In this document: positions 10,884 through 52,300 of the stretch, in pieces
How the letters are laid out: every line of letters starts with the position of its first letter
Position numbering within the stretch: position 1 is the first letter of the stretch
Origin: Paracyclopina nana
Taxonomy: Eukaryota > Arthropoda > Copepoda > Cyclopoida > Cyclopettidae
DNA: 64,000 nt
Reading direction: 5' to 3'
Assembly: GCA_019096065.1 (NCBI GenBank)
Contig: JAGUCH010000001.1
Location: forward strand, 8,680,001 to 8,744,000
The notes under the pieces: model-generated
The model's database searches: none
The model's input: only the letters and a program-made list of their open reading frames with translations
Told to the model about the DNA's origin: nothing
Program-made: the position numbers and the translations under genes

Positions 10884-12546
10884 ATGAGACGTAAGAGTGA
10901 ATCGGAAGACGAAGCCCAAGGCTCAAGCTTACCTGATTTTGAGCAGCTGGTGTCCCATATTGGCGAATTTGGATCGTACCAGCGGTGGCTGTATTTCGCA
11001 TTATGGATACCCGCTGGAGCTATGGCCATCGGGATCTATGCGTCAGTTTTCCTGGAGTTTGTTCCCAGCTTCAATTGCTCGGCCTACAAATGTTTGCCTC
11101 CGCCTCAAGATTTGCCAACCTGTACTGTGCCAAAATCCTGGCTCAATGATACCAATAACTGCAGCAGCGTTGCTGATGATGCGTCAATCATCGCGTGCAC
11201 CAATTTCACGTTCAACCAGTCCATGTTCACCAGAACGGTCATCACTGACTTCCAAGCCGTATGCGACCGAAGCTACCTGAAAACCGTGAGCTCCACTGTC
11301 TACATGAGCGGAATGCTATTCGGATCCTTTGCGTTTGGCTGGATCTCTGACTCGTTTGGAAGAAGGATTGCTTTCACCTTGAGCATACTCATGCTGTCTC
11401 TCGGCTCCTCACTGGCTGCATTTTCTGTCAACTATCCAATGTACATGGCTTTCAGATTTATCACCTCCATGGGTGGCATGGCCTCCTTCATGATCTCCTT
11501 CGTTCTGGCCACAGAGTTCATAGGCACCAAGTACAGGACTTTGTGCGGGATCTTGATTGAAATCCCATTTGCCCTCGGTCAACTCTACTTGTGCTTGCTC
11601 GCCTACTTCATTCGAGATTGGCAGACGCTGCAGGTAAATGAGCCCACTCACTCAATTTCTTAGCAGCCAATAATTTGCTTCTATTTTTAGCTCGCCATTG
11701 GGTTGCCGTTTTTTCTGCTGCTTCTCTACCTCATCAAACTACCCGAGAGCGTTCGTTGGGCATGGGCTGTGGGAGAGATGGAGGTGGCGAACAAAGTCAT
11801 ACGTGAGATGGCTGACTTCAACAAAACCCCACTTCCCGAACACTTTATAGCGACGAAATGCCTCCTGCCCAAGTCGGCGGCTGCCAAGAAGAGTGGGCTC
11901 ACTGCTCTGCTCAAGTCTGGCCCTCTTTTGGGAAGACTCGCCGTCATGGCGTTCAACTGGATTGCTGCCACTCTCTGCTTTTACGGCTTGAGCTTGAACG
12001 CGGGCATCGGCTCGAACACTTTCGCGGCCTTCAGCCTCGCGGCCGCCATGGAGATTCCGGCCTACATTCTTTGCGCGATTGCAAGTATTCCGTGCCCCCT
12101 GCTTAACTATGCTAATTTTCTCGTTCCTTGTTTAGACGATCGATCGACTGGGCAGAAAGCCTTTTCTCATCTTCGTCCAGATGCTATGCGGGCTGTCTTG
12201 CACTTTGGCCGGCTGCTTTAGCGACCCAACCACCCGACTGGTCTTCTCTCTGATGGGCAAATTCGGCTCGGCTGCCGCGTTTGCAGTCGTGTTCCTGTAC
12301 ACGGCCGAGCTATTCCCCACCCCAGTGAGGAACTCCTCGATTGGGGTGTGCTCTACCCTCGCGAGAATCGGAGGCATTCTGGCCCCGTCCGTAGCTCAGC
12401 TGGGCTACAAGCACCCCCAAATTCCGTTCCTAATCTTTGGCATCACGACAGTGATCGGTGGCCTGGCTGCCTTCCTTCTGCCAGAGACAAAGGGGAAGAA
12501 ACTGCCCGACTCCATCGAGGAGGCGCTGGAGATGAGCGAAAAATGA
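10884..12546 (+). CDS. SLC22-like organic ion transporter (MFS)
   Basis: This is a plasma-membrane transporter of the major facilitator superfamily, closest to the organic cation/anion (SLC22) group; the substrate cannot be told. Three exons, 10884-11633, 11691-12080 and 12136-12546, give 516 residues, normal for SLC22. After TM1 there is a large Cys-rich extracellular loop with several N-x-S/T sites. Next come the MFS signature FGWISDSFGRR, the PESVRWAW loop after TM6, the second signature TIDRLGRKP, and YTAELFPTPVRNSSIGVCS in the C-terminal half. Intron 1 is 57 bp, GT-AG. Intron 2 (55 bp) keeps frame only if its donor is GC (GCAAGT), that is, a GC-AG intron. The conserved continuation into DRLGRKP supports this junction. 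Confidence 0.93.
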
Positions 12547-21033: not shown

Positions 21034-21846
21034 TTAAGCTTTCTTCAAAATCGTGTAGTAATGCGTTGTCAGCTTTACGCAAAGCTCCCATTTGATCACT
21101 TCAAGTCCACAAGACATAAATATGTCCCGCAGCATTTTCTCATCGGCTTCCATGGCAGGGAATGCCGCACTGCCAACAGTGTACATATGTTCTCCTATGG
21201 AACCGTGAATGATGATCAATCCGTTTTGCTTCAGGTACTTGGCCACGTTGCTCAAGGCTTGCTTAAACATATTAGCGCTCACTGCCACTACATCAAACAC
21301 TAAAGATGCGATTATGACATCGAACAGCACTTCGTTGAACCTCCCCTCGAAAACGTTCGAATTAGTCACATCACAGAAAACTACATCCTGCAAGAAGAAG
21401 TAATGCCACCATTTCGGGGACACAATTAAGCCATGCATGGTGTGTCTTACAGTAATTGCGTTCCTGGTTCTGGCTTCAATTTCGTCCACACTGCTATTGA
21501 GCTCGAGGACGCCCAAAAAGTTGAAATAATGGGACCACGAGAATCCACCCGTTTGCTGCTCTTTGAACTTTAGTATCTCCTCTCTGTTCGAGGTTAAATA
21601 GTCTGCCATGATAATTTGAGAGCAATATTTGCTGGCTGATATGATGTTGGAAATTGAAGGTCCACACCCAATGTCGAGGATGATTTTTTTGTCACCTGAT
21701 CCCAAAATCGAGGGCACTGTGTCACTAAATGCTCGGTCGAGGAATTCAGTCCATTCAATTTTCACATTGGAACACCAAGTGGACAAATAAGAGGGAGAAT
21801 AGTACGAGTCTAAGCTTCGATGCAACCTTGCAAGATTCTCAGACAT
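21034..21846 (-). CDS. NNMT/PNMT/TEMT-family SAM methyltransferase
   Basis: This is a class I S-adenosylmethionine-dependent small-molecule methyltransferase of the nicotinamide/phenylethanolamine N-methyltransferase family. The methyl acceptor cannot be told. It is a single uninterrupted exon. The ATG at 21846 gives 270 residues, close to the ~264-residue NNMT; an in-frame ATG 39 nt upstream is less family-like. Motif I is LDIGCGPSISNIISA. It is followed by MADYLTSNREEILKF and FSWSHYFNF, which match the family's TDYxxxNRxELxKWL and FDWSPYxKF blocks. SLVFDVVAVS corresponds to the post-II region. The lack of introns, unlike its neighbours, could mean an old retrocopy or simple intron loss; the frame is intact. 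It is divergent from the HSPA12-like gene, with about 550 bp between start codons. Confidence 0.88.
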   Translation of the reverse strand: MSENLARLHRSLDSYYSPSYLSTWCSNVKIEWTEFLDRAFSDTVPSILGSGDKKIILDIGCGPSISNIISASKYCSQIIMADYLTSNREEILKFKEQQTGGFSWSHYFNFLGVLELNSSVDEIEARTRNAITVRHTMHGLIVSPKWWHYFFLQDVVFCDVTNSNVFEGRFNEVLFDVIIASLVFDVVAVSANMFKQALSNVAKYLKQNGLIIIHGSIGEHMYTVGSAAFPAMEADEKMLRDIFMSCGLEVIKWELCVKLTTHYYTILKKA

Positions 21847-22397
21847 TTTGAATGAGCTTGCCAAAATCAAGGGAGAAAGCTGCAAAAGTGCTCAGCTTGC
21901 ATTTTTAGTATTTCTGAAAGCATCCTTATGAAGATTTCTTCAAGATGTTTTCCCCACTTTGTAGCTTAGCACGCAACAAAAACAACTTAGGCAACAAGCA
22001 GGAAAACACCTAATAACTATGTACATATTTTTGAGTTTAAATGAACGGGACATCACTTGCATAAGACTAATAACGAATTTCAGTGATGATTGGTTTCATG
22101 CTCACTGAACAGTGACAAGAGTTAGCCTCATTGACATCATAGCGCCGAATGGCCCATCTCATCTAACCAATCCATCTTGAACAATAATTTAGAACTGGAT
22201 TCTCAAAATATTTGCCATGACAAATAATTCCTAGCCTAAGACAAGTTCGTATCAGAAAAAAAAGAGTTGGGGCTTTGATAATAGGGTATATGGGTAGTTC
22301 CTAGGTCATAATAATTTGGCGTCACTCAGCTCTACTCGAACAGCAAGTGTGATAAAAAATTTGTGTGAACCATATACACAGTGCTTAGTGAAATAAC
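21847..22397. promoter_or_regulatory. Shared divergent promoter region
   Basis: These 551 bp separate the start codons of the methyltransferase (-) and the HSPA12-like gene (+). Both promoters must lie here or overlap the neighbouring 5' ends. A TATA-like gggtatatggg lies near 22285. There is no coding signal. Confidence 0.4.
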
Positions 22398-25300: not shown

Positions 25301-28300
25301 GCCGAGATACGATGGTAAAGGCAGCAAATGGCAAGGAAATGCCAGCGATGGCTGTATTTGCCATGACCCTAGGATACTTCCGAGATCACGCCCTTCGCGA
25401 ATTATCTGATAGCATTGGGCAGAAGCTATCAGAAAATGAAGTACGTTGGGTCATCACCGTGCCGGCGATTTGGAGGCAAAGAGCTAAACAGTTCATGAGA
25501 GAGGCCGCCTATCAGGTAATAAAGACTTTTTTATTGCTAACATAAGGCCAGCCTAGGGGGAATTCCGAAGTAAGCTTCCTTGATGTGATTCAGCAATCCT
25601 GCAATAGCTTCTATTTGTCGAGGATATTCGTGCTCAGTTGTCACGTACTGATGACTTAGCAGGTCACGCATGGTCGCCCTTTAAAAAATCAAAAGTCACA
25701 TGCTTTTATTGGGGAACAATATTTGATTGTCGTACCTTCGACTCCGTAGCGTTCCATTGGAGTAGTCAACGATCCGAACTTGGCATTGGAATTTGTCTTG
25801 ATATATAGCTACTTTGTCATCCATATAAATGTCTCTGCGAACGAGTCCGCTGCTGCACACCGGGCCATAGATCTGCACAAAGTCCAAGTTGCGATCCTTT
25901 CTCTTTTGAGGCTTGCCTTGGTCAGAGGCATTTTTGAATAGCTCCTTTGCGTAGCTGAAGACAAAGTTTCCTCTTGGGGTAAAAATGACAATCCTCTTCA
26001 GATTTAGGGCAACTGACAAAATCCGATTCATAGTTTTGTACTTTCCTGAAATACGAAGAAGAGTTGCTTTTTTACCAATTTAATACCAGATATAGTTTAA
26101 GGTTTCTACCTAGATGTGTCATGGTCATGATGTTCCAGAGTTCTAAGGTATCGCCAGGATCACCGAATGTGGTGAGAACTCCATAAGGATAGCATAGATG
26201 AATACTTAGGACATGCTTATCTGCGATTCTTTGACTCTTCACGACAGTTCCAGTGTCAAGGCAGAAAAGGTGCATCCAATAATACCTCATGGCAGTAAAA
26301 AGAAGGCATCTATCAGCATCCACTTGGATGTGGCTCTCTCTGAGCAGTTCAGGTGCATAGTGATAGAGCTTGACAAATTTCGGAGTCTCTTCGTCGGTTA
26401 TTTGGTACAGTTTCACCCTGCCATTCGTGAATGACACCACCAGCCTGTCTACAACTGTCAGTTTCAAGTCGAAAATCCCATAGTTGAAGCTCACCAAGCC
26501 GATGCTCTGTAAATATTCGCAATTAGGCATTGTCTCTAGTAATGGCTTGGTAAAAGCTCATTACCGAAAAGCTCCTCCTGTGCCACACTTTCAAAGTGTC
26601 ATTGCCGTGGCCACTTATCACAAATCTGTCGTTGATGGCGAGTAGCTTAGGATATGTGTGGGAATGTCTCAAAATTTCCTTGAGCTCTCGCGTTCTTTTG
26701 TCATACACGTGGATTCTGCCATTCAGGAGGCAGCAGAAAATCTCCCCATTGTCTACGTACACAGATTTGACTCTATACTTACAGTCGATGCAGCTTTGTT
26801 CTGGAAATGCCATGCTCCATTGGTACTCAAGTCGATCGGTCAGAAACCTCTGTCCTACTTTACTGTAGGTGAACATGTCGTCTATCACGGCTTTCAAAGG
26901 CTTGCAGACGAGTTTGCAATTTTTGAAACTTTTCTCGTCTAGGTACATAAGGATTTTCCTTAGGGCAAACCATTGGTGATTGTCTATTAGCTTGGAGATG
27001 AAGAGGCTTTCATTTAAACAGGGAAACTCCTCGCGTCCTTGAGCTATCCCATTAACAATGGCCTTTCCAAAGGTTAGGCTTCTAGTGAAAATCGGCCCAT
27101 GGTGACTCGATCCTTGTGTGGTAGTGGCCTCCTTTTCCTCTTCTTCCCACACATTCCATTCTGGATGGAATTTAAAGACTGGGAGAATGGAGCTGCCCAT
27201 TGAGCTTTATTTCGCGCAACAATTGAATTTTAAAAATCAGCTGCTGTTTCCGTTTGCTGTTTGCGCTGGGCTGACCTGCACGACTCGGCGCGGTCAGTAC
27301 TTGTCCAACTTTTTCAATGATAGCTCGCTCTAGCGGTCAATTTATGCAATCAATTAATGGTGGTCACTCCGCTTAATGCTTATAGGCTGGAATTGGATCT
27401 GATGCGAACCCAGAGCACCTCTTGCTTGCTCTTGAGCCAGAGGCAGCTTCCATTAATTGTAGGAAGCTGCGGATGAATCAACTTGTACCTGAGAGGCCCA
27501 GGTCAATTTTTACTAACCTCAGAGACAATGACAACATGTCCCAATGCTCGGATTTTGTCCTTGAAGACTCTGGAGCTGGTAAGCCTTCATTCTGACCCAA
27601 TCTCGCTAACAAAACACTAACTCCCAAACCCCATTATCAGATTCTGGTGGAGACTCTGACGAATCTCTGGATACATTGGATGGTAACAATAATAATACGA
27701 CTAACCAAGCCAAAAAATCGGTTCGATTCTGCATTGAACCTCAAGTTTTCACCGATGACATCTTTGTCAATGATGGATTTAACAATGGTAGTTGTTCATA
27801 TTCAAGTTGCTCTTAGCGTAATGAAGGAACTTTTTAGGAGGTCGTTACATGGTTGTTGATTGTGGCGGTGGAACCGTCGACATCACTGTTCACGAAATAA
27901 CCACAAGTGATGGCCAATTGAAGGAGCTGTTCAAGGCTACGGGAGGACCGTACGGTTCCGTCAGTAAGTGCAAGACTAGTCACGAGTTCTCCCTGAGTTA
28001 ATGGTCTTATTTGTTTCTAGGCGTCGATGATGCCTTCAAAGCGCTTATGGAGGAGATTTTCGGAAAGGATATCATGGAGGCTTTCAAGAAAAAGAGGCCT
28101 GCTGGCTTTGTCGACCTTATGATAGCATTCGAGTCTCGAAAAAGAGGATGCTCTCCCAACAAGCTGACACCTTTGAACATAGCCCTGCCATTCAGCTTCA
28201 TAGATTTCTACAGACGACATAAAGGAAAAGACGTGAGCAGACTTTTTCTCTTGAAATCCAATTAGTTACCGCTTTTGCGTCATTAGGTTGGTATGGCAAT

Positions 28301-31300
28301 CAACAAATACGGTAACAAAGATATTAAATGGGTCAGCCATGGCATGCTGAGAATCGAAGTGACCGTGATGAAGAGGCTTTTTGAATATCCGCTCAGCAAG
28401 ATAATTGAGGTAGGGCAAAGCATTTTTCTTCTTCTTATATTTGACTAGTTCGTATACTTATATGACACAACATATTCAAAACATTATGGGGAAATCACAG
28501 ATGAGAGTTTTTAAGGATGATGACGATAATGCGTATTGCTAGGAGCGAACAAGAGTGGAGGATACTCCCTCAAGTCTTTAGTTTTAAGTGCGCTAGCTGG
28601 TCCTTGCGACGGACTCAAGCTGCTTTCCGGAGGGGAAGGTAAACTGTTGACGATAGTGTTTCTGCCTGGCAGGGACATGAATTCGCTGTAGGAGGACACT
28701 ATTGTTTGATGTCCATCGAGGGGAATCACAGGGTCGATGCTAGATGAGCCCGTCGTGTTGAGTAGGTCGTCGCCAAAGCCCCCGGACACGGAAGGAGTAT
28801 CTGCGATGATGGGAGTGCCAGAGTAGGTAGTACGGGATTGGGTCGGAGTCAGGTTGGCTGTGGAAGAGTGCGCCTCGTCCTTCCGTCTCCTCCGCCTAGC
28901 CATGGCCATGAAGATCAAGAGGCCGAAAGCCAAAAGAGCAATGACTCCAACAGCAATGCTTGAGATGGTGGCAATGCCAATCCTGGAAGCCCTCGAGTCC
29001 CTCACTGATCTCGCATAGTTCAAGTCCTCCACCACCGTTGCTTCAACCACATTGGCAGACGATCCGCCAAGAACATTGAGTCGTCTATCGTAAATACGGT
29101 TGTCATCGACAGGAACTGAATCCAGGATGACTTCCTGCTCATCCTCGTAGTCGTCGTAGTTAGCGGGCACTCTCGGAACAAATACGGTATTGTCATATTG
29201 CCCATACTCTTGGAGTGGAGCTCGCTCTGTCGAAGATGCTCGCTCTGTTGAAGAGGCTGTTGGTCTGCTGACAGCATCGACAAGCTCAAATTTTATTGTA
29301 CCCCGTTGTGGGCCATCAAAGACAGCGGTCTCTTCTTCAATTTGAGGAGGAGTTGCCTCGGAACTCCTTCCAAAAGAGGCCTCCGTTGTTGGATAGGGCC
29401 TAAGAATTGGCCCTCCTATCTTTGGTACGTCAATTGAGGAATCGGTTTCTGTCCGGAAGGACGGTGGTAATTCTGGAGCACTCTGTATAGGCGGTGGTCT
29501 TCTTGTGGTCAAAGGTGGGATGCTTGGTAACTTTGGCTCTTTTTGCTCTATGGGGAAAAACGGCTTCTGTTCAGCTTGGGCCCCTGATGTTTGGGTAGAA
29601 GATTCATACGAGTCCTCGAGTCGCGGAAGTTTAGGCCTGTTCTCAGTGTCCTTCGCTGCTGGCTGCGCCTTGATCAATATTTGGCCTCTTGAGTCTTTGG
29701 ATTGGCCAAAAGTCACCGTCACGTTTTCGAGAGGCTTGCTGGGACCAAACGCTTCAGAAACTATGCTTGAAATATTTCTCCTGATATCTTCTGACTGAAG
29801 CTCGTCAATCTCCTCCTCCTGGATGGGAATTGTGAGGTTGTAGAAATTTCCATAGAATGCACCCTCGCTCTCTTTGACTTTGCTACGCACAAAAGGATCT
29901 TGAGGAATGGAAGGAGGCAGCCTTGGTGGTTGTGGTATAAATTGGTCCGCTGACTCGTCATTTCGTGATGCCAATGATGGAATAGGTAAACTCAGTCCAG
30001 CTTGTTGCGCAACTAGACCAGCAACCAAAGCAATGACCAAGTCCCTCACTCGGCTCAAAACTCCTGAGGAGAAAAATGAAGCTTCTGTGGTCGTCGTTGA
30101 AGCCGGTTCAGTGGTGGAAAAAACTTCGATTGGAGCTGCAATCTCCTCCAATTTACCGTCGGATTTCGTTAGTGGGTTTGGTGTTGTTAGTCCTATTGGC
30201 AAATTCGGTGCTTTGGTGATGTCCGGAATAGCTTTTTCGTCAACCACCACGTTTATCGTTGGAAGGGTTGTCTGCCCATCGAGTGCCTCATCTGAACTTG
30301 AAATATCCAGATCAGACGTAGCATCGCTGTCTTTGATTGATGAATTATCGATTTGGGCTGGTCCTTGTTCCTCAATTTCATCTAGTGTTGAAGCTTCTGT
30401 GGTAGATGAGGCATCAGGCAATGAATTGGATTCTTTTTCCAATTCAGGGCTTTTAGTTGCCAAAGATGGATCATCAACTGATGAAGGCAAATTGTTCAAA
30501 TCAGGCTTGGGTGCCACATTTTCTCCGTTATGCTCTTCTTCAGTCGAGGGGATGACATTATTTAGTGCTCGTTGTGTTGTTGATGGCCTTCCACTGGCCT
30601 CATCTGGCTTCGATACTACAAAGAATTACTTTAGATAATGAAATATACATTATTTTATTTATTCGTAATACCTATTGGCTTGGTTAATTCGGACGGTAGT
30701 TGTAGCGGTTGGGTTGACGTTTCTACTCGATCATTTGCTGAAACAATGATTTCTAAGGTATATGAAAATTATCTTGCTTTCATAGTTTTACCTTGTGTCG
30801 TAAGGGGAGCCGAGATGGTTAGCCCAAATTCAGAAATGGACATCAAGTCTGTCTGAGTTTGTTGCACAACAGGTTTGCTCTCTTGCGCCTTAACTGTAGA
30901 AAGTTCGGTTTTTGGCAGTTCGACATCCGGAGTTCTTGTTGCAATAGTGATACCAAATTTTTCAAAGCTCAATGTAAATGGTTCGTTTGTCGTACTTTCA
31001 AAAAGCCCTGTTATTATTTCATTCAGAGCTCCTCGAATATCCTTGGCTAGTTGCTCAGCGTCTACATCTTCGGACCTAGGTGCCTTGAAGAGCGGCACTT
31101 GAAATGTTTGAGAGCCTGCTTTCTCTCCCTGAATGTTCACAGTGACCGTCACAGCTTCTTCGTTCGCATCTGAAATGTCGATCTCTGCTTCCTTAGTCAC
31201 TGTTCCGGTCAGGATATTGACCTTGACCATTGAGGGTGTAATTAGTGAGGGATTCTCTTTGATGTGATTTTTTACTTCTCCAGCTATCATTTCTGCCAAA

Positions 31301-34300
31301 TCCTCAGCCTTTTGTGATTCTCCAATTTCACTAGGCCTTGGCTTGGTTAATACGTCAGCTATTTCGATCTTTAGCTGGACCTCGTCAATGTCACCTAGCT
31401 TGTCAAGTGGAACAATTTGTTCAAATGTGAGTGGCTGTGCTACTGTGCCAGTCTGAACTTTGACATTTGCCACAATCTCTTGGCCACCATCTCCTCTTTG
31501 AAAAATCTCAATATCAGGCTCAGGGATATCCTGCCCAGTGCTTATCACAACTTTCACTGTATCAACGTTTTGGCTTTTTTTGGTGTTGCTAAATTGGACT
31601 ATAGCATCAGTGATCTTTTGAGGGAGATCTTCTACGTTGCGTTGTTCATTGTTTGCTTTAGATGCCAATTCTTTAACTAGCACGCCTGCAACGCTCTCTG
31701 CTGAAAACTCAGTTTTGGAAACGTCCACTTGAAGGGTTTGCGAGCTGCCGACATCTCCAGGAATTTTTAAAGTGGCTTCAACCTTTCCTGGAATGAGTTC
31801 TTGAATGGCGATTTCTGGCTCTCCTTTGAAATTTCCCTTGACAATCTCCACTTTGATTGTCCCAGGAACATTTTCTGCTTCTTTTCCTACAAATTCTACG
31901 ATGGCCTCTGATACTTGCTGGATTGCTTTCACTTCTTCCTTGATGGTCTCTGTTACGCTAAAATCTTCAATCAGCCCATTTTCCAATTGAATCTTATCCT
32001 TTTCTCTATCGCCGGTATTTGGAACTCTGACTTTGAGGGTCACAGTTGATTCCTCCTTCTTGCCGTGAACTTTGATGGTTGCCTTGACGCTTCCATCGTT
32101 CAATGCGTCCACAGATATTTCCGGCTCTTCAATGTACTGACCTTTGATGATAGTAACCGTAGCATTTTTTGGAGGCGAACCCTCTTCTTGGAACTGTATT
32201 ATACTCTCAGCAGCCTCTTTGATCACCTCAGTTAGTGCGAAGTCTTCGATGAGGACTTCTTTCAGCTTGGTTGTGTTTACTTTCATTTTGTTGGTGCTTT
32301 CCACTGGAAGTGGAATGGACAATGTGGTGGAATCTGTCTTTGATGAGGGAGCAGTGACAATGGCAGTGAGCTTTCCATTGCTATCTGTAACAACAACGTT
32401 AGCCGAATCGACAGCTTCTTTTTCCTTGTTGACTTGAATCGTGATTTTATCCGGAATGGTTCCATTTTTCAGTGACAAGTACTTATCCACAGCTGCTGGA
32501 ACATCCCGGATGGTTTCTTGGAGAGACAACTCTTCTTCAAGATGCTTCTTAACTTGCTCTATGGTGTCATTTGAAGAAATGGCTGAGTTGACTGAAATGC
32601 TTTCTTCCTGTTCACCCGGAGCTGATACGGTGACCCTTATTTTATCATTGTCTTCTGACGCTTCAATCGAAATTTGGGGCTCGTCGTATTCCTCTCCTTG
32701 TTTGATTGTCACGCGTATCGAGGTGGGTGTCAAGCTTGGGTTTCTCCCTATGAAGTTAGATACAGCCTTCGGTACATCTTGGACAGTTTCTGCAATAGCA
32801 AACTCTTCTTCTAGCAAATCTTTCAGTTTCTCTGAGTCGACCTCTCTATCCTCATTCTTTGGAACATCAACTGTAATTGCTGTTTTCTCTTTGCTGTCTC
32901 CAGGAGCAGTTATAGTTGCTTTCACGTTGATGTCACCAATCGACTCGATGGACACCTCGGGAGTTTCGATGGAATCACTTTCTTGAACTGTAACTGTGAC
33001 GCTAGTGACGCTGGTTTTATCAGCACTTTGCTTAATGACTTGTGACGCTTCCTTGAATGCCTCCTTAATAGCTTGTTTTTCCGCCAGCTTTTTGCTTAGA
33101 TCAACATCATGAATGTCTTTTTGACTTTCTACTGAGACTGACAATGACGTGGAAGAATTTTTGTCGCCGTAGGCAGTAATTGTTGCCTTCAGAGTTCCGT
33201 ATTCAGTGGGCTCGATTGACAATTGCGGCTCATCGTAAGATGTTCCCTTTTTTAGTGTCACTTGAACTTTGTCTACCTTAGTTGCTGGATTTTGATCGAC
33301 AAAAGTATTTACGGCCTCTGGCACGTTTCGTAGCGACTCCGCAATGGAAAATTCTTCCTCCAATGACTCTTGAAGCCCCTCAACATCGACCTCTTTTGTG
33401 GATGGAGAAGTCTTGATGTCAGACTTAAATGTGATCGTACCAGCTTTCTTTCCAGGTGCTTTGATTTTAGCTTTCACGTCTCCTTGAACAATTTCCGTGA
33501 TGGAGAGTTCAGGTTCTTCGATATCCTCGCCAACATCAATAGTCACTGTCACGCTGCTAACATCGACCGTCGCGTTCTTGGGAATAAATTTGTTGATTGC
33601 ATCAGGGACTTCTCTTATGGTATCAACTAATGCAACATTCTCGTCAATTTGATCCTTGATTTCTTCTTGCACATTGCCCTCACTATGAATTGGTGAAGTC
33701 ACTACAATAGGCGCTTTCTTTTTGCCATGCGTTGTGATGGTAGCTTTGATTTCACCTGAATCAGTAGCTTCTATTGCAACTTGAGGCTCTTCAACTTCTG
33801 GGCTTTGCTTTATCACTACTTTTACCTGGGTGGGTTTCAAGTCGGGATTCTCTTCAGCAAAGCTGACAATGGCTTGAGGCACCTTTTTGATGGCCTCGCC
33901 AGACTCGTACTTTTCAATCAGAGTTTTCTTCAATTGCTCTGTATCTTCCGTGTTCGAAACTGTTAGCTTTGTTTTTCCCTTGCCTTTCCCTGGTGCTTGG
34001 ATGGTCACCTCAATTTGGTCCTGGTAGCTAGGCTCAACAGAAATTTCAGGAATTGGGCTTTCACCTCTTTCGATTGACAACGCAATCTTTTCTGGCCTGG
34101 TTGCATTTGAGCCTTTGATTACCTTCTCGATTGCTGCAGGAACTTCTTTGATTGTATCCACAATTGCCAGTTCTTCAAGCAGATTTTTCTCAAAGTTTTC
34201 AGCATCTGCTTTTTTGTTGTCTGATGCCGTGAATGGTATCGTTACGTGAATTTCCTCCTTTTTCGTAGCTGGCGCGACAATTGTGGCTTTGATAATTCCA

Positions 34301-37300
34301 TTAGGTTCCTGGAACTCAATTGAGAATTGCGGCTCTACAAACTCCTCTCCCTTTTTGATGGTGACTCGAACTTGAGCTGGTCCGTTGATAGAGTTTTTCT
34401 CAGCTATTTCAGCTACAGCTGCTGGTACTTGCCGAAAAGTGTCAGCAAGGGCTAGTTCTTCAACAAGTGCGACTGTCAACTGATCAGTGTCGATTGTATT
34501 GCTGTCGGTTTTGGGCAATGGTACGGTCAGCGTAGTCTTCTTATCTGAGTTTCCAGGTGACCTGACAACAACCGTAACAATTTGTTTCTCGGCCTCTTCA
34601 ATGGCTAGCTCAGGTTCTTCGCTTTTTTCAAAGATAATTTTCACCCTATCATGGGCCGAGTTGCTATTATTTTTCTGGAATTCTGCTAAAGCGGCTGGAA
34701 TATCCTTTACCGTGGTCAGCACTGCCAGCTTTTCGTTGAGGTCTTTTTCGAGCTCTTGAGGCGTCTCGTTGGGAGTGATTGGCACCAAAACTGAAAATGT
34801 CTCATTTTTGACTCCATGAGCCTTGATTGTAACCTTAAGCTGTCCTTCGACGCCAGTTGGCTCAATAGACTCGGCTGACTCTTTTTGAGTTGTGTCTGTT
34901 GCAATAGTCACTTGAACCTTATCATAGCTGGAATCCTGATCTTGATTTATATAATCAATAACTTTTGAAGGGATTGTCTTGATGGTCTCGCTGATGGCGA
35001 ATTCTTCAGCGATGCTGTCTTTCAGCTCCTCAATTTTTACTTGATTGTCTTCTGTTTTGGGAACATGGACGGTTATTGTGGTGGACTCGTTTTTGACTCC
35101 AGGCACTTTAATGGTGAACTTGTCCTCACTTTTCGCAATTTCAATCTCCGTTTGTTGGTCACTTTCAATCTTTTGAACGGTGACTGTCACTCTTAGATGT
35201 TCTTGAGAATCATGTGCAACCTCCTTGGCGACATCCTTGAAGCTTTCAATTACTCCGAACTCTTCAATAAGATTCGACTTCAGCTTGCTCTTGTCAATTA
35301 CTGTTTGACTCTTAGTCAATGGGACAGTGACACTTCCTTTGAAAGGGTTTTGAGCCACAACATGGATGTCACCTCTTTCCGTCTGTTCAATAGCTATCTG
35401 CTCTTCTTCATTTGCATCATCGAAACTAACTGTCACCTTCTCAGCTTTGATGTTTGGATTTTCCACTATAAAGCTCTGAATTGCTCCAACCACATCACGG
35501 ATGGTTTCCTTTATGCCAAAATCCTCAACAAGGTCGGCCTTGAGCTGATTGGTGTCAGTGAGGTTATTGCTGTTTTTTCCTAGCGTAGCCTTTATCACTG
35601 TTGGCTCTTCTGGTTTGCCTGGTGCCTTAACAACAGCGATAACGTTGCTGTCAGCATCAACGCCTTGAATTTCAACCCGAGGGCTGTCCACGTCATTTCC
35701 CTTTTCAACAATAACAGTCACTTTTTTGGCAGGAACATCTCCATTTGTCTCATCCACATAATTTCCAATGACGTCAGCTATTCCTCTGATTGTTTCGCTC
35801 AAGGCAAACTCTTCAATAAGGAGTTGTTTCAGTTGTTCAGCGTCCGCTTTGCTCTCAGCCGTCTTCGTTACCGGAATGGAGATTGTAGATGTCTCATTGT
35901 CATTTCCAAAGGTTTGCACAGTTGCCGTTATTTGGCCTTTGCTCGAGGCCTCAACAGAAACCTGAGGCTCTTGTTTGGCCCCATTCTTGGTGACCTTTAC
36001 AGTCACCTGCTGCTGAGGTTGGATTTCTTGGTGCTTATCGATGAACTCAGCGATGGCCTCGGCTGTTTTTTCAAGTACATCTTGGGCGGCTTTGGAATTG
36101 TTTGCAGTCTTCTCGAGGCTGTGGTTCTTTTCCTCGTCGTCGATGATTGGTTGGTTCGGTTCTGTGGTCTCATGTTGCCCATTGAAGACGACGTGTTCAT
36201 TATTATTTGCCGAGTCATTTTGGTGAGTGGGTAGCTGAATGCCAAATAAGACGAATGAATCTTCATTTCCTTGAATTTTTTCATTCGATTCGGCTGGGCT
36301 ATTGGCGCTCTCAAGAGTTTGCTTTGGTGGGTGAGCTTCAAGTGCCAGATTTATGTTGCCCTCTTGCAATTTATCGCTAGCTCCATCCTTTTCAATATCT
36401 GAAGGTGCATTCGGTTTTTCTGTCTGGTCGGGATTGCTCATTTGGGTTGACAGCAGTGGGTTGCTATTCTCAGATGTTTCTTCTGAAAATTGCTCAGATT
36501 GGCTCGATGACGTTTCCAAGCCGTCGTCGTTTATGCCCGACTCTTCATCTAAATTAGGCGGTTTGCGGGTTTCCATGACTGCCTTGTCAAATGCGTCTGA
36601 AACTTCCTTAGCAAGCTCCTGTTGATTCATGGACGGCATCAAGGGGACATCAAAAGATATGGAATCATTGGCATCTCCAGGCAATTTAACCCTAACAATG
36701 ACATCATCAGTGGTCTCCCGTGCAAGCGCAATCTCGGACACTTCCAGCGTGTCCTCGGTGCTGACGTTGAGGTGCAAGATCTGCTCAGAGCTCGCGTCGC
36801 CCGTGTCTTTGACAAACTCCATGACTGAATTGGCAATCATTTCTGCTAGGGAGTCCTCGTCAGGATTATCGGCCTGCGTTGTAGGCGAAGTCGGCCGGAC
36901 CACGATTTGCCTCAGGGCTGCCTCAATCCTGGCCTTGGTGACGAGCCTTTTTTGCTCCAAGTCGCCACTCTTTTCGACAGTTACGCTAACCTCTCCATTT
37001 TTGTCGCTGAACGTGATGATTGGAGTCGTCGATGTCAAAATGATAGGCCCCTTCGTGCTATTCAGGTTTATGCTCACCGTGCCATCTTCGGCGAGGGGCT
37101 CGTTGATCCCGCTAATGATAACGGTGTCCTCGTTGTCCTGATCCTCCGTGATGATGTTGGCGATATCTTGCGCTACCTGGGAAATGATTTCGTCCACGTC
37201 GAAGAATGATCCGCTCGTGACCTCATCAAAGTCAGCCATTTTTTGAGCGATGCACTCTTCCAGGTCAGCCTCGCAAACCGCTATCATCGTGCTATTGAGT

Positions 37301-40300
37301 AGGCAAATGTTGTGGCCTACAAAGCACTCGGAAAGAGCCTTCCTCTGCGCTGGCTTGAAACGCTCAAAGTTGTCGCCTCCTAGGCAGAGATTCTGAGCTT
37401 TGGCACATGTCACAGCGTCCTTGCATTCGACTCCCTTCAAGCACACTGCCAGCATTAGCTGAGGGTCATTAGTTGGTTGCTCGGGTAAAATGGCAGGGTC
37501 TGGAACTTTTTGTTCTGAGCAAGCGTGACAAATTGTGGCAAATTTTTCTATTGCGCCAATAATGTTGGTTCGGATTGTCGAGTTGAGGCTGGGATCAAGC
37601 TGCTGAGTCGAATTGTCGCCCAAGAAGAATGTTGATGGGTTGAAGATGACGTGTTCTGTTGCGTTGCTGTTTGAGTCATCCAAGAGTATGATAAAGTCTT
37701 GGAAGATGGGCAGCGTGTCGTTTTGGGCGAGCAGATCGGCTATCGTGACGTTGCCCTGGGAGGGCTGAATTTCGAAGCCCTTGGTGGAGTTTTGAATTGC
37801 GGAGAGAACGCTGGAGGTAAGCTCATTGAGGATTTCATCGTTGCTCTTGTTCTTCATCATTGCCAGCCCTCCAAGGACTGACATTGGGTCGATGGCCTCT
37901 TCGGCCATTGCGAGCTCGGTTGGAGGTGGCGGAGAGCTGGAAAAAACCATGGGCAGGAACGAGGCTGGCACGACGATTCCGATGCATTTCTCAAACGTTC
38001 CCTGGCACTCTGAGCTATCCCGGTCCCCATTCAAGTGGCAAAGTATATCGTCCACTGAGCATTCAGATAGCTTTTGCCTCACTTTGTGTGGCAGCATTGC
38101 CACGTCCATGCCTTCGTTGCATTTTTGGTGCACTAATCTGCACCTAGAATTATCCTCGCAGCCTATGCCTTCTAGGCAAATTGCCAATCTGAGCGAGGTC
38201 TTTGAGGTGCTGTTGTAAAATGACACGTTGATGCTCAATAATGACGCGTCGTCCTTCTTTGACGATTCGATCAGCGTTGTTGCCGTTTGAATGCCATCTA
38301 CCGACTGTGTCGTGGTGTCGAGCCCAGTGGCTAAAAAGTCAAGTATGTTGGGGCTCATTGTGGTGGTGACGAGATTCGGCTCGGTGTCTTCAAGCATTGT
38401 TGCTGAAATCGAGCTACTTTTTACGACCAGACCTTGGGTGGATATGTCATCGGCTGTGATTGATGAGGAAGTTGTTGGTATGTCATCAAGCCCTGTAGAT
38501 TCACTTGGAGGAGGAGAAGAAGTTTGCTGATTTCCCTGTTTTTCTTGCTCCGAATCACCCGCCACATTTTCGGGATCCGTAGCTGGTGCAACCGTAAGTG
38601 ATCTGACAGTTGATTGATCAGCCTTGGAAATGAGCGGTTGACCTTCAGTAGCTTCTTCTTGTGGCGCTTCGGTATGCTCGTCTTCCATAATCGTGTCGCC
38701 ATTAGCTGGTGTAACTGATGCAGTTGGTGATATGTCCACGGTTGTCAACGGCAAAAACGACGACGAGTTGCCTGGCTGCTCAGTTGACAGGTTTTCTGTT
38801 TCACTTTTTTGCTGCTTCACGTTTGAAGATGCATCTCCCACGCCGCTGAGTTCATCATCATCATCATCAAGATTGCGCAGCGTTGTCGTCTCTTCCAAAG
38901 AAGTCTTTAGCGGTTCAGTTTTAGGAGTGATCTCGATCAAATTTGCGGCTTCGGTTGTTACTGGTTCTTTGATGTTGATGGCGGCTGTGCTTGGAGAACT
39001 GGAAGGTGTTGCGTTCACCGTAGTGGCTAGAGTAGTGACTTCTATGATAGTGGCTTTACTGGTTTTTGCATCTTCATTGGCTACTGTGACCATATCATTG
39101 TTAGCAAGAGTTACAGTGTTCAAGTTTTCCTCTTTGCTGGTACTGGTTGAACTTGGCGACACGGTAGGTGTTGTGGATTCAGCAGAAATGGTTTTGCTTG
39201 TCGCGTCTCCTTTCCCCACCTCGTTGGTCACTATGTCAGTTACGTCTTCCGCTATGCTGGTACTGGTTGAACTTGTAGAAATAATGGGTGCAGTGGTCAC
39301 CATCGAATCTTGAACTGTCGTGGCTTGACTTGTGTCTTCACTTTTCTCCCCTTGGTTGGCCACTGCGGCCATGTCATTATTAGAAAGGGGTGCGATGGTT
39401 GAATCCTCCTCTTTGCTGATACTGCTTGAACTTGGCACCACGGTAGGTGTAGTGGTTACAACAGTATCTTGCGCAATAGTGGCTTTACTGGTTTTTGCAT
39501 CTTCATCGGTTTCTGTGACCATGTCTTTGTTAGCAAGAGTTACGGTGGTCAAGTTTTCCTCTTTGCTGGTACTGGTTGAACTTGGCACCACGGTAGGAGT
39601 TGTGGATTCAGCAGAAATGGTTTTGCTTGTCGCGTCTCCTTTCCCCACCTGGTTGGTCACTATGTCAGTTACGTCGTCCGCTATGCTGGTACTGGTTGAA
39701 CTTGTAGAAATAATGGGTGTGGTGGTCACAATCGAATCTCGCACTACTACTGTTGCTTGACTTGTCTCTTCACTTTTCTCCTCTTGGTTGGCCACTGCGG
39801 CCATGTCATTGTTAGAAAGGGGTGCGATGGTTGAATCCTCCTCTTTGCTGATACTGCTTGAACTTCGCACCACGGTAGGTGTAGAGGTCACAACAGTATC
39901 TTCGTTGGCTTCTGTGATCATGTCGATAATAGCAATTGGTAAGGTGGTTACGTCTTCGTCTTTGCTGTTACTGGTTGAACTTGGAGAAACGACTGGTGTG
40001 GTTGTCACACTAGCATCTAGCGCTACAGCAGCTTTGCTTATCTCGTCACTTTTCACCTCTTCGCCGGTCACTTGGACTACGTCAGTGGTGGTAAGAGGAA
40101 CGCTAGTCGTCTCAACTCCCAGTAAGGGATTTTCAGTTGTTATTACATCGATATCAAGATGGGTTGATCCTGTCATGGCTGTGGAGGACGATGACGGCAG
40201 TGACGTAGATGTGATCACAACCGGTCTTGAAGTGGTGCTTGTAGCTGCGAGAACAACAACGTCGTCATCATCATCAAGGGTTGAAGACTCTTCAAGGCAG

Positions 40301-43300
40301 CGCCTAAAATTCGCCAAACATAGCTCATCATCGGAAAATGTGGTCAATTCGGCCTCCAATGGTAGGCGACACAAGAGCAGCTCCACTTTGCATTCAAGCT
40401 GAGTCGCTCGGTCCGTCAGGGATTTGGAGCTGAAATAGCTTTCAGCGTTGGGGATCCTGGGAGGAATTTGAATGACGCATTGGATCTCGAGCTGAGAGCA
40501 GGACTTTTCAGCGGTGCTTTGCTGGCTCAAGCAAGTGAGCGCATCCAAGCACACTGCTATCTCCGACCTCTGTATAGGTCTCGTGCCAGCATGCAATCGA
40601 TCCTTGAACTTGATCTCCATTTCGGCCAACACTTTTTCCATATTTGCCTCGGTGTCAACGGCTTGTTCGCTACACTCCATTTCGTAGACAGGCTCCCCAG
40701 GCACGTTGCCACCCACTCCGTAGTTGCAGACAAAAAAGTTCTCATATTCCCCTTCATCATAAATGCCTTTGAACTTGGAGGAGCCTTCAGACAGCGGGAA
40801 CTGAGTCCAGCCACAGCCAACATGGGTCGTGCGACCCCACAATATTTGGGTCACCAAATTCGTGTCCATTTTGCTCGGGTCGACCTGCAAAGTTACAATT
40901 TTGTTGTGGTGAGAAAGAAAAAAAATATTTTGGGCCTGCCCACCCACTCTTTTGCCAACGTGCAATCCATCTTTGGCTATTTCGTTCAAATCTGGCAACG
41001 CCAAAGTGCTAATGAAGCATCTGTTAAGGCGGGTTTGTTGGACGCTTTGGTGTGTTAGCGCCATTTCATACAGAAAAAGGTCAGTGAAACGAAGAGGAAA
41101 AGTGACTTTAACGCGCGCAGCAAGGTAATCAAACGGCTTGTTCCTCCCTTGACACACGTCAAAAAACGTTGATAGATCTGCTGTCAGATTACCTGAAAGT
41201 CCCCAATGCGACCTGGCTGCAATTTGTTGATGTCACGATACCACAAGTCATCGATGATTCTGGTGAAGTTGACAAGTTTCGTCAGTGCCCAGGCGACATT
41301 TTGCCCCACACCTGGGGGTGAATTGAATTTGCTCGTCGTTCTCTCGAAGCCTCTCTCGTGGAAAACTCGCGGGTAGGCATCGCTCTGATGGAAGTAAACC
41401 ACATTCGCACATTGATCGGCCCAAATCTGAGCCACTTCTGCCAGTTCTTCGTCCCACCTAAAATTCGTTAAAACTTGCATAGTAATGTGATGTTTTTTGT
41501 GCGTGCTACTAAAATCCTTTTAGCTGGTTGGTGGCCAAATATTTCCTCAAGAACTCCGAAAAAAACTTGGTATTTTAAAAGCACTTCGAACTTTAATTGT
41601 CGTTCCAATAAAAAGTTTAGCTATGACACTTTGTATTTGCCCACGAGGCATTATTTGGGAATAACTTGTGCATTTAAAGTAGGATTTCCGTGTCATACCT
41701 GCAATAGTGCCAGTAAAAGTCAAGCACTATTGTACTTATTTTAATTGGATCTAATTTTAAATCAAAACTGGAAGAAGAGTTGTTTCCTTTTCAAGTTTTA
41801 CCTCCTACTTGTACTCTTGAGCCCAAAAGAGTCACGTTTAGAAAATAGCTGTAAACTTTGTATGTTTGTTTGGCCCTGAGTCAGTTTTTCATACACTCAA
41901 GCTTGCAATATTTTAGATCGTCTTTTTATTTTAGCAACACGTCATTCTTATTTAATTTTGTTGGGCCTGGCCGTGCCACTTTATATTTCCGCATTATTAT
42001 GTTGAGGTTCACGCATATCTTACATTCTTGAATTACTCGCCAAAAGCTCAATAGCTATTTTGGCATGCAACTATGTTGTTCAAATGTTTGAAGAAAGTGT
42101 AAACATGGTTTTTTGGCCTATTCAGAGTTATTTAATTTCAAAACAAAATATGCCTAGCTGACAGTAAACATGCAGCTACATCTTTTTATTTGCTTACCTT
42201 AAATCTGGTATGCATTTAGTGGCCGGTAGACCCGTTTTTCCTGCCCTGACATCAGCACGGTACTCGTTATGCCTTAGCAAAATTTCATTCTTGAGATCTG
42301 GTCTGTTCTTTATGCCACGCCCGCTAGGGGAAACCCCCTGGGGGCACTGAGGGCCGATTCCACAATATTTGCAGCCAGTGTGCAGATCCCCTCCATACCA
42401 AGCTTGACAGTATTTGAGTTGGATTTCCCTGTTGCATATTGGCTTTTCCACTATCTCTTCGCCCAATAAGCCTTGGCTCAGGAGAGGAAGCAGCAAAATC
42501 AGTAGAAAATCCTTCATGTTTTTCAATTCGTCATTGTAGCTGTCTTCTCATCAGTCCTTCTGTTGAAGGATTACCTGAAAAAGTGGGATTTTGTATCATG
42601 TCTCGATTTAGGAGGAAAAGCCCAAGAAAACGAATTGGCAATCACTCTTAGCTCCTATTTCAAGCAACCATAACGTTGCCAGAAAATCAGGACAAAAACA
42701 CGTTCTTGGGTGTACCTGAGGAAATTGCCCCCAATTGCAGTCATTATGTGCTAAAAACTAGCAATAAATAACCTTTTGGCAGAAAGTTCATCATCATGAT
42801 GTCGAAAAACTGTTGGCCTCGCTGTAATTATACACCTTGGTGGCTTTTGCTAAATGTATGTTTGCAGGTGCTTTTGCAACCTAGTGAGACTGCATGCTGT
42901 TGCCAAAATTGAGTTCTCATTTGAAATTTCTAGGCAATCGACCCCAAGTTTGTGTCAAATGGCCGAGTGGCTCTTGAAGTACAACAAGAGTGATCTGCGG
43001 TTTTCCACACTCACGAATTTTGATGATGATGTTGTTGCTCAGCAACTCAATTGAATTCAGGGCATTTTCAATTTCGCTCGCGTCACGGTATCATTTCACC
43101 AGCTCACACCGTGGTGGAGAGGGCTGTAAAAAGGTGATCCTTTCTTAGTGCCGACACTAAAATAAGGCCGACTCGTCGTGCACTTCTTCATTTTTCCCCA
43201 TCAGCTCGTCAAGTATCTTTTAAGGGAACAATTTTTATGCAGTTCTCCAATCTCGTGGAGGGTTTTACTACTCTTGTGGCTCGTAGTGAAAGGAGTGAGA

Positions 43301-49300: not shown

Positions 49301-52300
49301 CAATGCATCTAAAAAGTGCATTCAACTCGGGTCAGTTTCATTGCCTCGGGTTATAAAATGCAACCATAACGTGTGCGTGTGGGATGTATAAAGAGCATCT
49401 TGAATTCCCTCCTTGATCATTGACGTTTCCCGCTTTAGATATCTACAGGGTGATTGTAAAAAGAATCTATGACTCGCAACATTACCTCACTTTTTAAAAG
49501 CTAATTTCTATCACGGTGGCATTTTGCACACGCGGATATTTGATTGTGGTATGTGTAAAAGTTGGAAAAACCGGTTGACGAGGCCTGTTTCTTCAACCGC
49601 GCCGGCGGGTTAAAAAGTTCAACAACTGCAGCAACGATTTGGAGCAATTTCGGGACGTGACAGCAGGCTGCTTCGCAATTTGTGGATGAAGGCGAGCAGC
49701 AAAAATTCCAGAGAAAATTAAGCCCAAATTTCAATTTGTTTTCCTTGCCCAAAGGCCAGTTTTGCATACAGCTCGATTTGGGTCAAACATGGGCACGTAT
49801 GCTGAAATTACGTAAGCGCTTAGCCAATTATTTCCCTTTTTATTTTCTGCTTCTTGATGCATTATCTACTATGGCAAATATGAATGCACTCTTATAAAAA
49901 TGACAATAGCAAATCAGGTAACTCAGGCAAACCGAAACATACTTGACAACCTAAAAAAATCAACAGCAATTACTCCAGCTCATCAACTGGTTCCATTTGG
50001 GGCCCTGAAAATCTATCTGAGTACCCTGAGGTGGAGAATTAGGGGACTGTATAAAAACCCCAAACTAGCACAAACTAGCACAAACCAGCACAAACTTTTT
50101 AATCTTTAAAATTTCAATGTAGAAAGCTCCCCTATGATCAGGAGAGCTCAAATATGTACTTTTTTTCATCAAATCCAATGGGAAGTACCTTAAATATCAA
50201 CTTAAATTAATATAAGAATACTTTATAATAGTCTGATAGCACAAACCTTTAGATTTTCAAAATTCCAAAGCCAAAAGCTCCCATATGTTGAGGAGGGCCC
50301 AAATTAAAATTTTCAGCCATCAAATCCAATGGTAAGTGACTTAAATACTAACTTAAACATTGTAATTGGTGCTATATAAAGAGTTTGGGCCCAAACTAGC
50401 ACAAACCTGCACAAACCAGCCCAAACCTTCATGAAATGTGTTTTTCATGCTACAGATCCTATTGGCTATGCATTTGACACTTTTTCTATTAATGAATGAT
50501 ACTTTTAACTTAAAAACTTAAAAAGCACAAACCAGCACAAACCTTTAGATTTTCAAAATTCCAATGCCAAAAGCTCCCATATCTTGAGGAGAGCCCAAAT
50601 TAAAATTTTCAGCCATCAAATCCAATGGTAAGTGACTTAAATATTAACTTAAACATTGTAATTGGTGCCATACAAAGAGTTTGGGCCCAAACTAGCACAA
50701 ACCTGCACAAACCAGCCCAAACCTTCATGAAATGTGTTTTTCATGCTACAGATCCTATTGGCTATGCATTTGACACTTTTTCTATTAATGAATGATACTT
50801 TTAACTTAAAAACTTAAAAAGCACAAACCAGCACTAATAAGCATTAATAGAAAAAGTGTCAAATGCATAGCCAATAGGATCTGTAGCATGAAAAACACAT
50901 TTCATGAAGGTTTGGGCTGGTTTGTGCAGGTTTGTGCTAGTTTGGGCCCAAACTCTTTATATAGCACCAATTACAATGTTTAAGTTAATATTTAAGTCAC
51001 TTACCATTGGATTTGATGGCTGAAAATTTTAATTTGGGCCCTCCTCAACATATGGGAGCTTTTGGCATAGGAATTTTGAAAATCTAAAGGTTTGTGCTGG
51101 TTTGTGCTTTTTAAGTTTTTAAGTTAAAAGTATCATTCATTAATAGAAAAAGTGTCAAATGCATAGCCAATAGGATCTGTAGCATGAAAAACACATTTCA
51201 TGAAGGTTTGGGCTGGTTTGTGCAGGTTTGTGCTAGTTTGGGCCCAAACTCTTTATATAGCACCAATTACAATGTTTAAGTTAATGTTTAAGTCACTTAC
51301 CATTGGATTTGATGGCTGAAAATTTTAATCTGGGCTCTCCTCAACATATGGGAGCTTTTGGCATTGGAATTTTGAAAATCTAAAGGTTTGTGCTGGTTTG
51401 TGCTTTTTAAGTTAAAAGTGTCATTCATTAATAGAAAAAGTGTCAAATGCATAGCCAATAGGATCTGTAGCATGAAAAACACATTTCATGAAGGTTTGGG
51501 CTGGTTTGTGCAGGTTTGTGCTAGTTTGGGCCCAAACTCTTTATATAGCACCAATTACAATGTTTAAGTTAGTATTTAAGTCACTTACCATTGGATTTGA
51601 TGGCTGAAAATTTTAATTTGGGCTCTCCTCAACATATGGGAGCTTTTGGCATTGGAATTTTGAAAATCTAAAGGTTTGTGCTGGTTTGTGCTTTTTAAGT
51701 TTTTAAGTTAAAAGTATCATTCATTAATAGAAAAAGTGTCAAATGCATAGCCAATAGGATCTGTAGCATGAAAAACACATTTCATGAAGGTTTGGGCTGG
51801 TTTGTGCAGTTTTGTGCTAGTTTGTGCCCAAACTCTTTATATAGCACCAATTACAATGTTTAAGTTAGTATTTAAGTCACTTACCATTGGATTTGATGGC
51901 TGAAAATTTTAATTTGGGCCCTCCTCAACATATGGGAGCTTTTGGCATTGGAATTTTGAAAATCTAAAGGTTTGTGCTGGTTTGTGCTTTTTAAGTTTTT
52001 AAGTTAAAAGTATCATTCATTAATAGAAAAAGTGTCAAATTCATAGCCAACAGGATCTGTAGCATGAAAAACACATTTCATGAAGGTTTGGGCTGGTTTG
52101 TGCAGGTTTGTGCTAGTTTGGGCCCAAACTCTTTATATAGCACCAATTACAATGTTTAAGTTAGTATTTAAGTCACTTACCATTGGATTTGATGGCTGAA
52201 AATTTTAATTTGGGCTCTCCTCAACATATGGGAGCTTTTGGCATTGGAATTTTGAAAATCTAAAGGTTTGTGCTGGTTTGTGCTTTTTAAGTTTTTAAGT

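What the first reader, a model, noticed from the sequence alone, without database searches (positions are those of the whole stretch)
28511..42517. Undescribed architecture: antigen-5-like CAP domain on a 4,260-residue repeat-rich membrane protein
CAP proteins are usually small and secreted. Here an N-terminal CAP domain is fused in one frame to 8-Cys modules, a Ser/Thr-rich stalk, about 20 beta/alpha repeats, a transmembrane helix and a cytoplasmic tail. All four exon junctions keep frame and the sum is an exact multiple of three. I know of no named family with this order.
Basis: partly seen in the sequence, partly recalled or inferred. Interest (0 to 1): 0.88.

Follow-up and report, generated by a model that had tools for sequence, protein, structure and literature searches.

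The report
Giant CAP-headed membrane protein of copepods
A single copepod-type gene encodes a huge membrane-anchored protein with an allergen-like CAP head on a long modular stalk; gene models of two other copepods show the same overall design, I found no paper that describes it, and it probably links the cell surface to the coat outside it.

Summary
On the minus strand five GT-AG exons (42517-28511) join in frame into 4,282 codons (4,260 if the symmetric 66-nt exon 4 is skipped). The 10-kb exon alone carries the end of CAP, three 8-Cys modules, a Ser/Thr-rich stretch and 19 repeats of about 91 aa, so the CAP-repeat fusion does not depend on splicing. TM helix and tail lie in the last exon. 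Gene models of Lepeophtheirus salmonis ('CRISP', 2,519 aa) and Tigriopus kingsejongensis (1,435 aa) also join CAP, 8-Cys modules, TM and a tail with the same motifs; nine unnamed proteins carry internal parts, six starting inside CAP. So this is a conserved copepod family; its membrane exon is single-copy here. No Pfam family above cut-off but CAP; no paper found in seven searches. The repeat array is lineage-specific (19 here, 0 in both named species, which repeat other modules). The CAP cavity is degenerate. Best explanation: a transmembrane apical-matrix protein with a CAP binding head on a long spacer, a conserved juxtamembrane RxxR that may allow shedding, and a tail for trafficking or signalling. 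Architecture: strong. Function: inference. Folds not predicted (tool off).

The parts
42198..42517 (-). exon 1: signal peptide (aa 1-20, by eye) and N-terminal antigen-5-like part with CAP3 motif HNEYR
41193..41457 (-). exon 2: middle of CAP, CAP4 motif GQNV; 72% identical to L. salmonis P0012 over its residues 58-147
40720..42274 (-). CAP domain (Pfam match aa 82-250), interrupted by introns 1 and 2
   Evidence: coordinates
30792..40884 (-). exon 3, 10,093 bp: end of CAP, 8-Cys modules, Ser/Thr stretch, module B, 19 repeats, twin FG motifs
40285..40569 (-). 8-Cys module 1 (aa 301-395)
38236..40284 (-). Ser/Thr-rich (33%) Cys-free stretch, aa 396-1078
37966..38235 (-). 8-Cys module 2 (aa 1079-1168)
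37480..37965 (-). linker with 7 N-glycosylation sequons (aa 1169-1330)
37225..37479 (-). 8-Cys module 3 (aa 1331-1415)
36901..37197 (-). module B (aa 1425-1523): one copy here, five matches of the module in L. salmonis P0014
36589..36837 (-). first repeat of the 91-aa family (aa 1545-1627)
31033..36069 (-). array of 18 further 91-aa repeats (aa 1801-3479)
30940..30972 (-). first FG motif [11 protein letters not shown] (aa 3500-3510)
30811..30843 (-). second FG motif [11 protein letters not shown] (aa 3543-3553)
30672..30737 (-). exon 4, 66 nt, phase-symmetric (skippable in frame)
28511..30615 (-). exon 5: Ser/Thr- and Pro-containing part, juxtamembrane stretch, TM, tail, stop
29690..30067 (-). 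membrane-proximal stretch (aa 3765-3890); a part of it (54-57 aa in the relatives) matches L. salmonis and Tigriopus models at 80-88 bits
29000..29011 (-). juxtamembrane RSVR (RxxR, possible proprotein-convertase site); RSIR in L. salmonis, RRIR in Tigriopus
   Evidence: sequence
28898..28981 (-). transmembrane helix (aa about 4127-4154) followed by RRRRR
28790..28837 (-). cytoplasmic motif [16 protein letters not shown]
28676..28735 (-). cytoplasmic motif [20 protein letters not shown] with YxxPhi-like YSEF

Best explanation
A type I transmembrane protein of a copepod family. Shown from sequence: secretion signal, degenerate antigen-5-type CAP head, three homologous 8-Cys modules, Ser/Thr stretch, a lineage-specific array of 19 repeats, one TM helix, and a tail whose motifs persist in two named copepods. 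Inferred: the CAP and 8-Cys parts bind a ligand (lipid, sterol, or matrix protein or glycan) well outside an epithelial cell; stalk and array act as a length-setting spacer through the glycocalyx or apical cuticle matrix; the conserved juxtamembrane RxxR lets a convertase release the ectodomain into the matrix, as furin-type sites do in ZP proteins; the tail (YxxPhi-like and TPS motifs) directs apical trafficking or signals. CAP would act by binding and not through the metal-dependent cavity, because a cavity histidine is lost.
For: One gene and order. Membrane exon single-copy in this genome: one search found only itself (4 candidates scored). Tail conservation in window, two L. salmonis models and one Tigriopus model; tail piece 46% identical to P0012. 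RxxR next to the TM in 4 of 4 models that reach it, i.e. three species (window RSVR, P0012 and P0014 RSIR, P0013 RRIR). Spacer role: 91-aa repeats at i-E under 1e-3 with the profile iterated over all proteins: window 19, P0003 19, P0008 12, P0004 10, P0011 9, P0006 8, P0009 1, P0010 1, P0005, P0007, P0012, P0013, P0014 0; P0014 instead has five matches to module B and P0013 four matches (some split) to a module of its own. Array stable between window and P0003: 11 reciprocal best pairs, 9 at equal index. CAP1 histidine absent in 6 of 6 sequences that show the motif core. A CAP protein lacking the cavity histidines binds sterol: PMC5893428, passages. Furin site before the TM of a matrix ZP protein: PMC10597583, passages.
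Against: No expression, localisation or binding data. No ZP or SEA match (E up to 1). The Ser/Thr stretch has only 5% Pro, so it is weakly mucin-like. An RxxR so near a TM may concern topology, not cleavage. Tail conservation fits a signalling receptor as well as a matrix linker. Repeat fold unknown. The Tigriopus model's CAP is below Pfam's cut-off (17.2 of 21.1 bits), starts inside the domain and lacks a signal peptide and the CAP1 stretch. The module-B profile seeded on the window matched P0014 only weakly (best i-E 1e-3); the clear match came from the profile seeded on P0014 (window module B 69 bits). Some models are truncated, so zero counts may partly reflect missing sequence (P0012 lacks stretches that P0014 has).
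Confidence: 0.42

Rival explanations
1. Uncleaved adhesion or signalling receptor: the CAP head recognises a partner (another cell, gamete or matrix) and the conserved tail signals inside; the stalk only presents the head.
For: Tail motifs SR[TN]T..TPS and DPV..DGHQTI..SY.E recur in window, L. salmonis and Tigriopus models. A CAP protein in cell recognition: GLIPR1L1 as IZUMO-binding protein (title and start of abstract in the listing).
Against: No Pfam domain found in the last exon; the conserved RxxR suggests release.
Confidence: 0.3
2. Lipid or sterol capture receptor: the CAP head collects lipid outside the cell and the protein is internalised through the YxxPhi-like tail motif.
For: HpVAL-4 binds sterol and has a palmitate cavity without the cavity histidines (PMC5893428, passages); YSEF, YNEF, YEEY in the tails.
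Against: The caveolin-binding loop was not tested; a giant variable stalk is not needed for uptake.
Confidence: 0.15
3. Host-interaction or venom-type CAP protein as in parasites and stinging insects.
For: Best solved structures are insect venom allergens; one named relative is from the salmon louse.
Against: Another relative is in Tigriopus, which is free-living (recalled); membrane anchor and conserved tail.
Confidence: 0.05
4. Artefact: separate CAP and repeat/TM genes joined by eye.
For: No transcript data here; splice sites are consensus calls.
Against: CAP end and repeats share one 10-kb exon; P0012 and P0013 join CAP to TM and tail. These are gene models, P0013 from MAKER by its name.
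Confidence: 0.03

Closest known systems
L. salmonis 'CRISP' (P0012, 2,519 aa) and 'uncharacterized protein' (P0014, 2,588 aa); Tigriopus kingsejongensis Tk10173 (P0013, 1,435 aa)
   Same: CAP (P0012, P0013; P0014 is cut at its start), 8-Cys modules, long variable stalk, FG motifs (pair in P0012 and P0014, one by the pattern in P0013), RxxR, TM, RRRRR, tail motifs
   Different: No 91-aa repeat; L. salmonis repeats module B, Tigriopus another module. Their CRISP or uncharacterized labels come from the database; I found no study of them
Insect venom antigen 5 (Ves v 5, Sol i 3)
   Same: CAP with similar N-terminal region (YC...HT.CKY; alignments)
   Different: Small secreted proteins; here the CAP1 histidine is lost and about 4,000 residues with a TM follow
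GLIPR1 and GLIPR1L1
   Same: CAP proteins linked to membranes (recalled); GLIPR1 structure 3q2r matches at E 2e-6
   Different: Small; no 8-Cys modules, long stalk, repeats or this tail (recalled, not compared)
Spider CAP subD with extra Cys-rich C-terminal domain (PMC11209345, passages and section 8 read)
   Same: CAP followed by a Cys-rich domain of unknown function
   Different: Described as venom proteins, domain as poly beta-sheet; sequences not compared here
ZP-domain apical matrix proteins (Piopio, Dumpy; PMC10597583, passages read)
   Same: Membrane-released matrix proteins with a furin-type site before the TM: a working analogy
   Different: No ZP domain here; not a member

Membership tests
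CAP superfamily | PF00188 above its curated cut-off | tested here: met
   50.3 bits against 21.1
CAP superfamily | CAP3 HNxxR and CAP4 G[EQ]N[ILV] (patterns from PMC11209345) | tested here: met
   HNEYR and GQNV
CAP superfamily | CAP1 with cavity His, [GDER][HR][FYWH][TVS][QA]... | tested here: not met
   NLVTQILW; only the TQ..W..T core matches; 6 of 6 sequences with that core lack the His
CAP superfamily | strict CAP2 pattern | tested here: not met
   [12 protein letters not shown] in 9 of 9 sequences that contain the region, V at the [PARH] position; relaxed pattern matches. The profile match keeps it in the superfamily as a degenerate member
Antigen 5 | full-length similarity including the N-terminal Cys region | tested here: met
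   Sol i 3 E 2e-18, Ves v 5 E 4e-15, alignments from aa 42 or 36 to about 265. Similarity only; no antigen-5 phylogeny was made
CRISP | hinge plus ICR (Crisp) domain after CAP | tested here: not met
   No Crisp Pfam match at E up to 1
GDNF-receptor or GLG1 Cys-rich repeats (for the 8-Cys module) | profile similarity | tested here: not met
   hhalign probability 0.1% to each; controls between the three 8-Cys sets 95-99%. Templates were thin: 3 of 4 GDNF matches and 13 of 14 GLG1-type matches from this genome
SEA-type transmembrane mucin | SEA domain PF01390 | tested here: not met
   No match at E up to 1; the genome has 2 SEA matches elsewhere
Transmembrane mucin | dense O-glycosylation of a Ser/Thr/Pro tract | not testable with these tools
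   33% Ser/Thr, 5% Pro
ZP-domain matrix proteins | ZP domain | tested here: not met
   No match at E up to 1
Copepod CAP-TM family (defined here) | CAP + 8-Cys + RxxR + TM + two tail motifs | tested here: met
   Full set in window, P0012 and P0013 (CAP of P0013 below Pfam cut-off); C-terminal set in P0014

The most novel reading that the evidence does not exclude
Copepods have a private class of apical-matrix receptor: a degenerate CAP head and 8-Cys modules held far from the membrane by a spacer whose length is under selection but whose building block was re-invented, with different modules tandem-amplified in different copepod lineages, while the membrane and tail end stayed nearly fixed.
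Probability: 0.3. Interest if true: 0.65.

Novelty: new variant of a known kind. Interest (0 to 1): 0.5.

Why it matters
It adds a membrane-anchored giant with a conserved tail to a superfamily known mostly as small secreted proteins, points to Cys- and repeat-module families without a Pfam entry, and shows amplification of different modules inside one orthologous protein. Relatives exist in the genus Tigriopus and in the salmon louse, so its function can be tested directly.

Tried and rejected
Two-gene artefact: rejected. GDNF and GLG1 ancestry of the 8-Cys module: no similarity. Common origin of the 91-aa repeat and module B: hhalign probability 0.5%. PDB profile searches of repeat pairs and 8-Cys modules: best E 0.25, and no match up to E 5. 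Pfam scans of single members: 8-Cys, 7 families, at most 2 of 21 members each, best E 0.0074; repeat pairs, 63 families (25 shown), at most 6 of 22 members each, best E 0.0011 in one member; read as chance, though cut-offs are not shown in those tallies. Self-BLAST of the whole protein gave only the trivial hit; replaced by an iterated profile. COX1 to identify the species: no match in the assembly; 'copepod' rests on the named relatives. The PF00188 search of this genome listed 10 matches, not including this three-exon CAP. The tail search with L. salmonis residues 2300-2519 found only L. salmonis among 1,051 candidates and missed Tigriopus, so it does not show absence elsewhere. Paper searches were seen as listings of the best 8-15 rows (51, 653, 1,048 and 15 papers matched; 1; 0).
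Full report
What was checked. The window is part of contig C1 of a 92-Mb, 10-contig assembly. The minus strand holds open frames of 3,487 and 704 codons, translated. Reading the junctions gives five exons with GT-AG introns, a CDS of 12,849 nt and 4,282 aa. The longest open frame in 20 shuffles was 251 codons.

Anatomy. Signal peptide; CAP (Pfam E 5e-13; antigen 5 structures in PDB); 8-Cys module 1; Ser/Thr-rich stretch; 8-Cys module 2; sequon-rich linker; 8-Cys module 3; module B; one repeat; linker; 18 repeats; twin FG motifs; membrane-proximal stretch; RxxR; TM; RRRRR; tail. The 8-Cys sets are homologous to each other by profile comparison (95-99%). Mean identity among the 19 repeats is 31%, maximum 52%, so the array looks old.

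Relatives. A first search found P0003, P0004 and P0005. All three open inside the CAP end and run into 8-Cys modules; P0003 and P0004 run on into the repeats, P0005 has at most one weak match. A profile of four sequences found 11 proteins, including L. salmonis 'CRISP' P0012 and Tigriopus kingsejongensis P0013. A tail search added L. salmonis P0014. P0012 and P0013 carry CAP, 8-Cys modules, TM and tail; P0014 is cut at the N-terminus and carries the rest. CAP of P0012 is above Pfam's cut-off (36.8 bits), that of P0013 below it (17.2 of 21.1). Of the nine unnamed relatives P0003-P0011, six begin inside CAP (P0003, P0004, P0005, P0006, P0007, P0011) and three after it (P0008, P0009, P0010). None of the nine shows the juxtamembrane or tail patterns; several end soon after the FG motifs, which fits an intron there as in the window. 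Their species are unknown.

Evolution. Repeat counts differ widely (figures under the best explanation). Between the window and P0003 the arrays are partly collinear: 11 reciprocal best pairs, 9 with equal index; 13 of 19 best hits at equal index. P0004, P0008 and P0011 gave only 3, 4 and 3 reciprocal pairs with the window. In P0011 the copies are young (mean 59%, maximum 90%). L. salmonis P0014 has five matches to module B where the window has one, using the profile seeded on P0014; the profile seeded on the window matched P0014 only weakly; Tigriopus repeats a module of its own. The membrane exon is single-copy in this genome. A separate intron-less frame on C5 encodes a CAP protein plus one 8-Cys-like module without TM in its 467 aa (30% identity over 270 positions by BLAST; 8-Cys match 14.5 bits with strong composition bias, domain E 0.0027 in the six-frame set), which suggests that CAP plus 8-Cys is the older unit (inference).

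Function. The CAP1 histidine is missing in 6 of 6 sequences with the motif core, so the metal-binding cavity is probably not functional; a histidine-less CAP protein still binds sterol (PMC5893428, passages). The conserved tail and juxtamembrane stretch and the RxxR site in 4 of 4 models (three species) point to regulated surface display or shedding. The analogy with ZP proteins (PMC10597583, passages) is a working likeness only; no ZP domain is present. YxxPhi and RxxR as sorting and cleavage signals are recalled motif knowledge.

Literature. In the listings of searches I saw no paper describing a CAP protein of this architecture; the only paper holding both 'CAP superfamily' and 'copepod' is about sponge silica (PMC10772126, passages). 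CAP family papers on blowfly (PMC7694928, passages) and spiders (PMC11209345, passages and section 8) do not use the word 'transmembrane' in their main text. The library is open-licence only, so absence there is not absence in print.

Verdict. Real, one gene, conserved, uncharacterised. New variant of the CAP superfamily; interest moderate because relatives are already in databases under generic labels and the function is inferred.

Noticed in passing
L019 2833-3542 (+), G000:C5: Beside the secreted CAP paralog lie small frames with a signal-peptide-like start and repeated HALRIRR/SHALRIKK motifs, like a neuropeptide precursor (read).
   Followed up: no
L015, G000:C1:9122890: Another CAP gene whose frames continue into many thrombospondin type 1-like W..W..CS.TCGGG repeats (read): a second multi-domain CAP architecture in the same genome.
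   Followed up: no
L013/L019 1225-2700 (+ in L019), G000:C5: Intron-less CAP plus 8-Cys-like paralog; the window gene has two introns within CAP, so the C5 copy may be a retrocopy or an intron-loss copy.
   Followed up: partly
window 50238-53468: Tandem array of a 296-bp unit (2.0 + 8.9 copies, 97-98% matches), satellite-like, in low-GC sequence.
   Followed up: no
window 30940-30972 and 30811-30843: Paired FG motif found as a pair in 8 of the 13 proteins examined, once in 2 (P0009, P0013), not in 3 (P0006, P0010, P0011); meaning unknown.
   Followed up: partly
window 7562-8290, 10842-11660, 21037-21891, 26526-27206: Neighbouring frames match homeodomain, sugar transporter, NNMT/PNMT-type methyltransferase and F-box families.
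   Followed up: no
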